From contig RPFO01001137.1 in NCBI GenBank assembly GCA_009746045.1, forward strand, positions 21,001-85,000: a stretch of 64,000 bases of DNA, in the 5' to 3' direction. The notes under the pieces are model-generated. The model searched no databases, was not told the origin of the DNA, and worked only from the letters and a program-made list of their open reading frames with translations. Position numbers and translations under genes: made by a program. Position 1 is the stretch's first letter. Every line of letters begins with the position of its first letter. Below, piece after piece: positions 24,330-63,974 of the stretch. The DNA is from Mesostigma viride. Its lineage: Eukaryota > Streptophyta > Mesostigmatophyceae > Mesostigmatales > Mesostigmataceae.

Positions 24330-27300
24330 TCAAGCGGCAGCCAGCAGCCGTTCTGCTACGGGCGCTAGAATGTCTGCCGCCTCCACCAGGATGATCGCGG
24401 CCGTGGTCACACGGAAGCAGCGAGGGAGGAAGCCTTTGTAGAGCGTCGCCATCCCATTTTCGGCGTACATGGTGGCGGCAGTGCCGCGCACGGTGCGGTA
24501 CACCGAGTCCTCTCTCAGGTCCGCCTGGTAGCAGGGGGCAGCGCAGATAATCACTCCCACTTTATATTTGTCAGGGATGCAAGCGGGAGGGCATCCACAA
24601 GCAGCAAAAATATGCATGAAAGGATACCACTAGTACGATTTCGGAGTTCCTGAAGAATAATGTGGCTGTGGATGGCATGCTGGGCAAGGCACCCGCGAGC
24701 GAAACCCCACAACTGCATAGGTAATGAATACGAGCTGATTGTTAAGCCCCAATACATCATATCATAGGATACATCCATACATCATGAATGTGTTTTCTCT
24801 TTGATATACCATGAATGTGAAAAAACAAAATTATGAGTAATGCATCTTCACGGAAAATGCAAATGATCACCGTATGTACAGTGACAAACAATTCATCCCA
24901 TGAAACTCAGAGCGAAGCCAAGGGCATGCATCCATTACGGCAGTCCCAGACCACCTACACGCGTGTCCTCTCCTGCACAAGGAGCCAACCACCAACCACC
25001 TGCCCTCATGATAAAGAAGATTGACTGATTAACCCTGGGTTAAAACTTAAAACAGTAACCTGCAACGATAGAAGAGTTTGATATTGAAACTTGAATGGTA
25101 ACCAGGCATCATATAACAGTTTGATACTACTATTAAAACTCAACGGTAACCCTCCACCCGCCCCCTTACCTGCACATGTGGCCTCACGCCCACGTGCACA
25201 CATACCCTCATACACCGCACACATGCCCTCATTGAGACAAGCCCAGGTGTAAGCCGTGAACCATTTCAACCAGCCACCGCCCCTTACCTGCATGCGCGTC
25301 TTGATGGTATCGGCCGGGTGCGACACGACCGCGCCAAACACGCCCGCGCAGCACGAAGCCAACAACGAGGCGAGGCGCGGGTTCTCCTGGAACGTCACGT
25401 TGTCCGAATGGATGAAGCGCTGCTTGAGCACCGGCGAGATGCCCAAGTAGCACCCCGTGTACACGCTCTCCCTCATGCACGTGGGCGCCTGGGGGGCCAT
25501 TGAGGGATGGGAATGGGGAAGGGACCGGGCAGAGGGGGGGGTCGGAGGGGGAAAGGGGCAGGGAGAGGGAGGAGTGCCGGGGTAGCAGAGAGGGGTAGGG
25601 ACGCGGGTTAGGGCATGCATATAGGGTACATAGATTATAAGAAAGGAAACAGGGAGATGGGGGAGAATGAGGGATATCAAGTTGAAGTGGAAGGATCAGG
25701 GCGAACAAGTGTGGTGGCGCACCAGGGGTGGTGGCCAGCAGGGATGGGGATGGGGATGGGGATGGGGATGGGGATGGGGGTGGGGGTGGGGATGGGGTGG
25801 GGGTGGGGTGGGGGTGGGGTGGGGGTGGGGGTGGGGTGGGGGTGGGGGTGGGGGTGGGCCCGTGGGGTGGGGGTGGGCCGGTGGGGTGGGGGTGGGCCGG
25901 TGGGGTGGGGCGTGAGACAAGAGGGGGAAGGGCAAACTCCATACTCAGAATGATTATTATAAAATCTATAATTACAAGAATGTCCTTCTAGGAACCATTT
26001 GACAAACTGCCCTCCTAACCTTTCATTCGTAGAGTCACTCCTGTTTCCCTTGCTGTGCCTCGTGCGGATGTGGTGCATTAATACTGGCATCTCAGGCAGC
26101 TGTGACCACCATGAGCTGGGAGTCCACAGAGCATACCCGTACTAAGACATGGCAGCTTGCCAGCAGGTTCTAGGCCACAGTCATTTGCGATCCCTTGTCA
26201 AGCGAGAGGCAAGCTAGCTAAACGTAACTGCCTGCATGCCCCAGGCTACAAAAGACTAGAGGAAAAAGTCTCGCCACAACATCGAACCAATTTATTCTCC
26301 TGATCGACTTTCAAACTCCAGCAGCTGAGCTCTGCCCCCACCAGCGCCTAGCTATTACTCACAACAATAACAATATCCCTAAACATTTATCACTCACAAA
26401 GCTGGGAGGGAGATGACAGTCACAAAGTCGTCAAGGACGGTAAAACGCAAGCAATGCCACACTCACAAAACTATCAAGCATGGCATGACTTAATGTAGCC
26501 AGCATTCCAGTCTTAGCAAAGGTAGCGAGAACTCACAAAGCCGTAGTAGAAGGTCTTGAAACCACTCCCCTGCAGCATGTTACGGCACTGCCCGACGATG
26601 CTAGTGCCCAATCGCTGCTGCTGGATCATGACGCACTCGGCCGGGGTGGACACAAACGCGGAGGTGGTGCCGGCTAGCGTGGCCAGCATCACTTGGGCCG
26701 ATGAGGAGGGGGGCCCTATGTGGGGGGTGCCCGTGACCGCCTCGGTGGCTGCACACAGGGGGGGGGGGAACAGCAACAGGTTTATATCAACAGGAATATA
26801 TCAGAGGAGTATGAAGTGCGCGTGTGTATAATGGAAGAGAAATATGTGTGTGTATGTGTGTGTGTGTGTGTGTGTTAGTGAGTAAATGAGTGAGTGAGTG
26901 AGTGAGTGAGTGAGTGAGTGAGTGAGTGAGTGAGTGAGTGAGTGAGTGAGTGAGTGAGTGAGTGAGTGAGTGAGTGAGTGAGTGAGTGAGTGAGTGAGTG
27001 AGTGAGTGAGTGAGTGAGTGAGTGAGTGAGTGAGTGAGCGAGCGAGGGAGCGAGGGAGTGAGTGGAGTGAGTGAGTGAGTGAGTGAGTGAGTGAGTGAGT
27101 GAGTGAGTGAGTGAGTGAGTGAGTGAGTGAGTGAGTGAGTGAGTGAGTGAGTGAGTGAGTGAGTGAGTGAGTGAGTGAGTGAGTGAGTGAGTGAGTGAGT
27201 GAGTGAGTGAGTGAGTGAGTGAGTGAGTGAGTGAGTGAGTGAGTGAGTGAGTGAGTGAGTGGATGAGTGAGTGAGTGAGTGAGTGAGTGAGTGAGTGAGT

Positions 27301-63948: not shown

Positions 63949-63974
63949 ATCTCCGCGCTAACTTCCTGGAGGGG
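63949..63974 (-). repeat. Echo of RF1 PAT-exon acceptor
   Basis: CCAGGAAGTTAGCGCGGAGA on the minus strand repeats the acceptor and first bases of the exon (ACAG|GAAGCTAGCGCCGAGA, ending at 63873), about 90 bp upstream in the preceding intron. Confidence 0.75.

What the first reader, a model, noticed from the sequence alone, without database searches (positions are those of the whole stretch)
25150..63974. Splice-boundary echoes: introns of all three host genes contain degenerate copies of their own exon edges
At no fewer than 12 of about 20 visible exon-intron borders in the ankyrin pseudokinase, carrier and RF1 genes, the last (or first) 10-50 bp of the exon plus its splice site recur one to six times in the adjoining intron, 20-500 bp away, with independent mutations. 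The copies keep the GT or AG and the exon side, so they are not generic splice consensus. This would be an intron-growth route by repeated duplication of the splice border. It would also create many cryptic sites and a reservoir for shifting exon ends. I know of no described system of this kind, but I could not search.
Basis: partly seen in the sequence, partly recalled or inferred. Interest (0 to 1): 0.78.

Follow-up and report, generated by a model that had tools for sequence, protein, structure and literature searches.

The report
Introns stacked with old splice-site copies
In this unnamed eukaryote's genome, many introns carry worn copies of the end of the neighbouring exon and its splice signal, with older-looking copies further away, which suggests that introns lengthen and gain false splice sites through repeated small copying events at their own starting edge.

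Summary
The echoes are real. In the window, 10 of 33 splice borders (7 of 16 donors, 3 of 17 acceptors) match their own intron better than all 100 shuffles and all mismatched introns. Carrier and chaperonin genes elsewhere in the same 440-Mb genome show it too. Pooled, 18 of 60 donor-spanning windows have an echo, against 0 of 237 exon-interior windows, 34 of 541 intron-interior windows and 4 of 59 acceptors. Donor-like motifs in the first 400 bp of introns exceed shuffles, and the ten bases before them resemble their own exon, more so the nearer they lie. A uniform neutral tandem-duplication model explains part of this. It does not reproduce the size of the donor excess, nor the finding that 7 of 8 testable young copies end at the splice motif (24-32% expected). 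Best reading: repeated short local copying, partly plain tandem duplication and partly displaced template switching, leaves neutral, decaying copies just inside introns. No directed machinery and no use of the copies is shown. New variant of a known kind.

The parts
30684..43174 (+). Ankyrin-repeat gene (ANK), 11 exons modelled: 30684-30776, 32001-32102, 33631-33729, 35004-35102, 36138-36236, 36812-36910, 37792-37893, 38529-38633, 39323-39392, 39965-40179, 42911-43174
   Evidence: Open joined frame with GT-AG borders; ankyrin repeats by Pfam, no kinase match at E 0.001; 3' end of the gene not found
60817..63873 (-). Peptide chain release factor 1 gene, last three exons: 63873-63721, 62108-61854, 61011-60817 (stop after)
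   Evidence: Pfam RF-1 and PCRF; the contig ends at the window end
24330..28470 (-). Mitochondrial carrier gene (CAR), four exons: 28470-28341, 26748-26537, 25488-25288, 24524-24330
   Evidence: Pfam Mito_carr; 5' part not modelled
32229..32271 (+). Echo of ANK exon 2 donor (border 32102/32103), exon -41 to intron +2, score 62
31701..31955 (+). Five echoes of ANK exon 2 acceptor (border 32000/32001): 31701-31721, 31731-31748, 31808-31837, 31908-31932, 31942-31955
33753..33773 (+). Echo of ANK exon 3 donor (border 33729/33730), part of a 25-bp tandem array 33721-33787
35140..35186 (+). Echo of ANK exon 4 donor (border 35102/35103), exon -44 to intron +4, score 72; no intron-side similarity
36353..36378 (+). 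Echo of ANK exon 5 end (exon -27 to -1; GT not kept)
38679..38709 (+). Echo of ANK exon 8 donor (border 38633/38634)
39237..39258 (+). Echo of ANK exon 9 acceptor (border 39322/39323)
43256..43287 (+). Echo of ANK exon 11 donor (border 43174/43175); similarity runs on into the intron
63609..63657 (-). Echo of RF1 donor at 63721, exon -43 to intron +6, score 70
63030..63100 (-). Two further weak echoes of the same RF1 donor (63076-63100, 63030-63071)
63949..63968 (-). Echo of RF1 acceptor at 63873
61611..61627 (-). Weak echo of RF1 exon 2 donor (not significant: 12 of 100 shuffles)
25162..25174 (-). Borderline echo of CAR exon 3 donor (13 identical bases)

Best explanation
Introns of this genome collect degenerate copies of their own donor border through recurrent, short, local copying. 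A stretch of roughly 20-45 exon-end bases plus the splice motif is copied into the intron some 30 to a few hundred bases downstream. The real donor stays in use, so the copy is neutral and decays while the exon is conserved. New copies lie near the exon and older ones further in. Some events are plain tandem duplications across the border. Others are displaced copies that stop at the splice motif, most simply template switching primed at donor-like GT(A/G)AG strings in the intron. Shown: the copies, the donor bias, the distance gradient, genome-wide occurrence in the genes sampled. Inferred: the displaced template-switch step, neutrality, and net intron growth.
For: Window statistics. Carrier genes: 7 of 37 inner and 4 of 19 outer donors beat all 60 shuffles and all mismatched introns. 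Chaperonin genes, looked at afterwards: 5 of 8 donors beat all 60 shuffles. Pooled: donors 18/60, exon interior 0/237, intron interior 34/541 (ratio 4.8, 95% CI 2.6-10.8), acceptors 4/59, Fisher P 0.0017. Mismatched introns reach the same score in 0.17% of 2367 pairings. Neutral simulations give a ratio of only 1.4-1.7. Ten-base border words recur 37 times in own introns against 2.4 expected at 61 donors, one border giving 9, and 5 against 2.2 at 59 acceptors. Donor-like motifs: own-exon identity of the ten bases before them 0.51, 0.43, 0.36, 0.25 by distance bin against 0.26-0.27 for other exons, still P <= 0.0075 within 400 bp when 20 echo-bearing borders are left out. Among young nearest copies 7 of 8 testable lack intron-side similarity; tandem simulations 24-32%. 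Two contigs with 1.8-2.3% divergence differ by 9 indels of 4 bp or more, of which 4 (4, 7, 18, 43 bp) are by eye plain tandem duplications.
Against: Strict tandem arrays do not favour donors (4/62 against 7.8% of intron bases). Some echoes do have intron-side similarity, as plain tandem duplication predicts (L036e2, L041e2, L043e2, L044e2, ANKe11); of 10 displaced 90%-identical donor pairs 3 have a similar right flank and 2 a similar left flank. In the older set 6 of 7 lack intron similarity where simulations give 27-58%, which is weak. The two-contig comparison shows no fresh displaced copy. Thresholds were set after seeing window data; borders within a gene are not independent; simulations are simple.
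Confidence: 0.5

Rival explanations
1. Plain tandem duplication at a uniform rate. Units that fall wholly inside exons are purged, units that cross the donor are harmless, acceptor-crossing ones are partly purged because the first AG tends to be used. The exon is conserved, so border copies are seen for longer than intron-intron copies. Nothing is special about donors.
For: Fresh tandem duplications exist between two contigs. The youngest donor copies in CCT genes are contiguous tandem units of 40 and 48 bp. Arrays cover donors at the intron rate and acceptors not at all (4/62, 0/63). Simulations make edge-only signals and a distance gradient.
Against: Predicted border:interior ratio 1.4-1.7 against 4.8 (CI 2.6-10.8) seen. 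Short units cannot give median displacement 95 bp and up to 360 (simulated 24/49/60), longer units predict exon-interior echoes of which there are 0 of 237. 7 of 8 young copies lack intron-side similarity.
Confidence: 0.33
2. A process directed at donors: RNA, the spliceosome or paused transcription at the 5' splice site makes DNA breaks or supplies a template there, so exon ends are copied into the intron.
For: Donor bias over acceptors (18/60 against 4/59); copies mostly end 2-9 bases into the intron; only direct orientation is seen (0 of 53 inverted at the pooled donors).
Against: No direct evidence of RNA involvement; copies include intron bases past the exon end; acceptor echoes also exist.
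Confidence: 0.08
3. The copies are kept by selection, as decoys, back-up donors or recursive splice sites.
For: Many echo donors score as high as the real one; donor-like motifs are in excess near the real donor.
Against: GT kept in 25 of 29 copies against 21.2 expected without selection; copies decay with distance; CCT copy at L052 708 differs between the two contigs.
Confidence: 0.06
4. Chance, composition or assembly error.
For: First 400 intron bases are G-rich (0.29-0.32 against 0.24-0.25 further in); one inverted control scored 48 (CCT8 exon 3 acceptor).
Against: Shuffles, mismatched introns and inverted queries; an echo shared by two contigs.
Confidence: 0.03

Closest known systems
[quoted passage not shown] potato RdRp case PMC4974935, abstract seen; Drosophila cases PMC2891723, passages seen)
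   Same: Local duplication of exon-edge sequence with splice signals; the potato case crosses an intron-exon boundary
   Different: There a new intron arises between the copies. Here an existing intron takes up copies of its own donor edge; no new intron was seen, and several copies are displaced rather than contiguous
Human OCT1/SLC22A1 8-bp duplication of the exon 7 donor, rs35854239 (PMC8137991, passages seen)
   Same: A duplicated donor site at an exon-intron junction, polymorphic in one species
   Different: One locus, 8 bp, changes splicing; here copies of up to about 45 exon bases at many genes, mostly old
Introner-like elements (recalled; PMC4457414 seen in a search listing only)
   Same: Introns with recurring related sequence
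   Different: Introners are shared between introns; these copies match only their own border
Templated insertions by polymerase theta or microhomology template switching (recalled; PMC7407515 in a listing)
   Same: Short pieces copied from nearby with abrupt ends
   Different: Only direct copies are seen at donors; junction microhomology was not tested formally

Membership tests
Tandem genomic duplication (intron gain) | Contiguous duplicate of a segment holding a splice-competent site | tested here: inconclusive
   3 of 13 young donor pairs contiguous, 10 displaced; intron interior 32 of 54 contiguous
Tandem genomic duplication (intron gain) | A new intron arises from the duplicated segment | not tested
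   No relatives and no RNA data held for this genome
Minisatellite spanning a splice border | Head-to-tail array over the border | tested here: not met
   4 of 62 donors and 0 of 63 acceptors lie in such arrays, 7.8% of intron bases do; met for those 4 only
Introner-like elements | Related sequence in many different introns | tested here: not met
   Mismatched introns reach score 28 in 0.17% of 2367 pairings, own introns in 14 of 53
Templated insertion / template switching | Copy displaced from source, flanks unrelated | tested here: met
   7 of 8 testable young nearest copies; 6 of 10 displaced donor pairs have neither flank similar
Templated insertion / template switching | Both orientations occur (recalled for polymerase theta insertions) | tested here: not met
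   Inverted donor-spanning windows at score 28: 0 of 53
Functional alternative donors | Junction reads at the echo | not testable with these tools
   No RNA data

The most novel reading that the evidence does not exclude
The 5' ends of introns in this genome act as a time-ordered record: a donor-anchored copying process repeatedly lays a copy of the exon end plus splice motif just inside the intron and pushes older ones inward, so that donor-like decoys in the first 400 bp are largely fossils of the real site. This would be a distinct, donor-specific route of intron lengthening and of cryptic donor birth.
Probability: 0.25. Interest if true: 0.85.

Novelty: new variant of a known kind. Interest (0 to 1): 0.6.

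Why it matters
How introns lengthen and where cryptic donor sites come from are open questions that are seldom visible in sequence. Here about three in ten tested donors still show the source and the copy side by side, with a distance gradient, so rate, unit, direction and splicing effect could be measured directly in one species. It also warns gene finders that strong false donors next to the real one are systematic here.

Tried and rejected
Rejected: chance and composition (shuffles, mismatched introns, inverted queries). Introner-like elements. Contiguous minisatellites as the whole answer. Exon copies as translated exon extensions: copies carry changes of all kinds and one a stop codon (CCTx exon 2 copy, seen by eye); codon positions were not counted formally. 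Spacers between donor and copy copied from elsewhere: only self-matches, one overlapping locus or contig and one 16-base hit. Selection on GT. An early impression that a distance gradient by itself proves border-fed growth: neutral simulations are monotone in 57-62%.

Led nowhere: family scan of frames with stops; sequence past the contig end; a tRNA-synthetase family search; rough carrier scan before strands were handled (superseded); one search timed out through a loop error and was rerun; one search stopped at its last line, after its results were printed.

Rows dropped: carrier borders with a splice score under 4 (113 built, 75 used; 111 of 113 tested); low-complexity windows, targets under 120 bp and introns under 200 bp; L053, as second copy of L052, in all counts; the last CCTx donor for short flank. 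CCT donors: 9 listed, 1 not located, 8 tested; acceptors 8, of which one clear (score 42) and one weak (24) beat all shuffles; no mismatched-intron control in that call. A checkpoint note of mine called all haplotype indels tandem duplications; on recheck only 4 of 9 plainly are.

Full report
What the window is. It lies at contig C1655:21001-85000 of a 439.9-Mb, 2243-contig assembly with no relatives held, and the contig ends with the window. The genome is eukaryotic; the organism is not identified. The window is rich in transposons and simple repeats. Three genes with GT-AG introns were modelled: an ankyrin-repeat gene (ANK, 11 exons, + strand), the last three exons of a release factor 1 gene (RF1, - strand) and four exons of a mitochondrial carrier gene (CAR, - strand). 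Pfam confirms ankyrin repeats, RF-1/PCRF and Mito_carr, but gives no kinase match at E 0.001 for the supposed pseudokinase.

Observation. 33 borders were tested. 10 beat all 100 shuffles and all mismatched introns: 7 of 16 donors and 3 of 17 acceptors. The inverted query never exceeded 22, whereas own scores reached 72. Alignments show 13 to 49 bases, some exact and some clearly degenerate, from about 20 bp to several hundred bp away. The strongest are ANK exon 4 (44 exon bases), RF1 exon 1 (43) and ANK exon 2 (41). At all three the similarity stops 2-6 bases into the intron.

Elsewhere in the genome. Twenty carrier loci of the same genome (hits, sequence, exons) gave 113 borders, of which 111 were tested. 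Donors beating all 60 shuffles and all mismatched introns: 7 of 37 inner and 4 of 19 outer. Acceptors: 5 of 35 and 1 of 20. Two chaperonin genes were then looked at afresh: 5 of 8 donors beat all 60 shuffles; of 8 acceptors one clearly and one weakly. Among the chaperonin donors are plain tandem units of 40 and 48 bp across the border and a displaced copy at 95 bp.

Where the signal sits. With 36-bp windows slid across borders, donor-spanning windows have an echo in 26-30% of 52-53 cases, windows ending 36 or more bases inside the exon in none, and pure intron windows mostly in 2-9%; inverted controls at donor-spanning windows are 0. Mismatched introns reach the same score in 0.17% of 2367 pairings. 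Pooled with the chaperonins: donors 18/60, exon interior 0/237, intron interior 34/541, acceptors 4/59 with intron interior 42/462 on that side; donor ratio 4.8 (95% CI 2.6-10.8), donors against acceptors P 0.0017. Pairs at least 90% identical over 20 bp span 13 of 62 donors, 3 of 63 acceptors and 6.15% of intron positions.

Tests free of alignment. Ten-base words over the donor (6 exon, 4 intron, one mismatch allowed) recur 37 times in own introns against 2.4 expected, at 23 of 61 donors; one border gives 9. At acceptors it is 5 against 2.2. Donor-like motifs number 146 on the sense strand, 72 antisense and 84-98 in shuffles. The excess lies in the first 400 bp (117 against 66.9 in shuffles) and is gone beyond (29 against 31.6). 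The ten bases before such motifs match their own exon at 0.51, 0.43, 0.36 and 0.25 in the bins 0-100, 100-200, 200-400 and 400-800 bp, against 0.26-0.27 for other exons (permutation P <= 0.0005 for the first three, 0.71 for the last). With 20 echo-bearing borders left out it is still 0.38, 0.35, 0.34 (P <= 0.0075). Acceptor-like motifs show a weaker signal, 0.39, 0.31, 0.32, 0.25.

How it could arise. Two near-identical contigs (L052, L053; 1.8-2.3% substitutions) differ by nine indels of 4 bp or more; four are by eye plain tandem duplications, so this mutation is frequent here. One donor echo is present in both contigs, and another differs between them. A neutral model was simulated with uniform tandem duplication, conserved exon, decaying intron, with and without small indels. 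It yields edge-only signals and often a distance gradient. But its border:interior ratio is 1.4-1.7. Short units give displacements of 24/49/60 bp (10th, 50th, 90th centile), against a median of 95 and a maximum of 360 seen. Longer units predict exon-interior echoes in 6-13% of windows, where none of 237 is seen. Nearest copies with exon identity of 0.86 or more should usually share the intron beyond the motif. Of 11 such copies 3 were too close to test, and of 8 testable ones 7 share nothing past +2 to +9, against 24-32% lacking in simulations. By my own arithmetic that is a binomial chance of about 0.002 or less. In an older, less strict set the contrast is weak (6 of 7 against 27-58%), and several echoes do carry the intron along. 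Contiguous tandem arrays cover donors no more often than intron bases (4/62 against 7.8%). So plain tandem duplication is at work but is not the whole story.

Mechanism. The most likely reading is recurrent short copying of the donor edge into the intron. Part is contiguous. Part is displaced with its right end at the splice motif, as expected if a strand end at a donor-like string in the intron anneals to the real donor motif, copies into the exon for 20-45 bases and rejoins. The upstream donor stays in use, so copies are neutral and age. At acceptors the first AG is usually taken (established knowledge), so copies there are more often harmful; that fits their scarcity. The template-switch step is inferred, not shown.

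Known ground. Splice-border duplication is known singly: the potato case of intron gain crosses an intron-exon boundary (abstract), the human OCT1 donor duplication is polymorphic (passages), and tandem genomic duplication is an accepted route of intron gain (passages; Drosophila cases). Nine answered literature searches listed no genome-wide account like this one, within open-licence papers only. I call it a new variant of a known kind.

Limits. No RNA data; borders outside the window were picked by a splice matrix and may sometimes take an echo for the real site. Thresholds followed the first look at the window. Borders within a gene are not independent. One genome only, and about 290 kb of it.

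Noticed in passing
window 10874-12256 (+): Open frame with a full-length match to DDE_Tnp_1_7 (piggyBac-type transposase by recall), E 2.5e-40
   Followed up: partly
window 49928-50431 (+) and 52480-53151 (-): Two long frames with nearly the same translation on opposite strands, so an inverted repeat about 2 kb apart
   Followed up: no
window 40846-41028 (+) and 42097-42606 (-): The translation of the 81-bp minisatellite in ANK intron 10 recurs on the opposite strand about 1.2 kb away
   Followed up: no
window 5685-7221, 16095-17086, 26858-27445: Very long arrays of 4- and 6-base units (GAGG, TGCCCT, GTGA), open in several frames
   Followed up: no
L052 3546-6669 against L053: A chaperonin locus occurs on two contigs (C1641 and C887), 1.8-2.3% apart, with about 3.1 kb of extra sequence in one copy; possibly haplotypes
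   Followed up: partly
window 32001-38633 (+): Exons 2-8 of the ankyrin gene each hold about one repeat, with borders in phase 0, as if the gene grew by exon duplication
   Followed up: no
acceptors in all loci tested: No acceptor lies in a contiguous tandem array (0 of 63, where 7.8% of intron bases do), as if such duplications are selected against
   Followed up: partly
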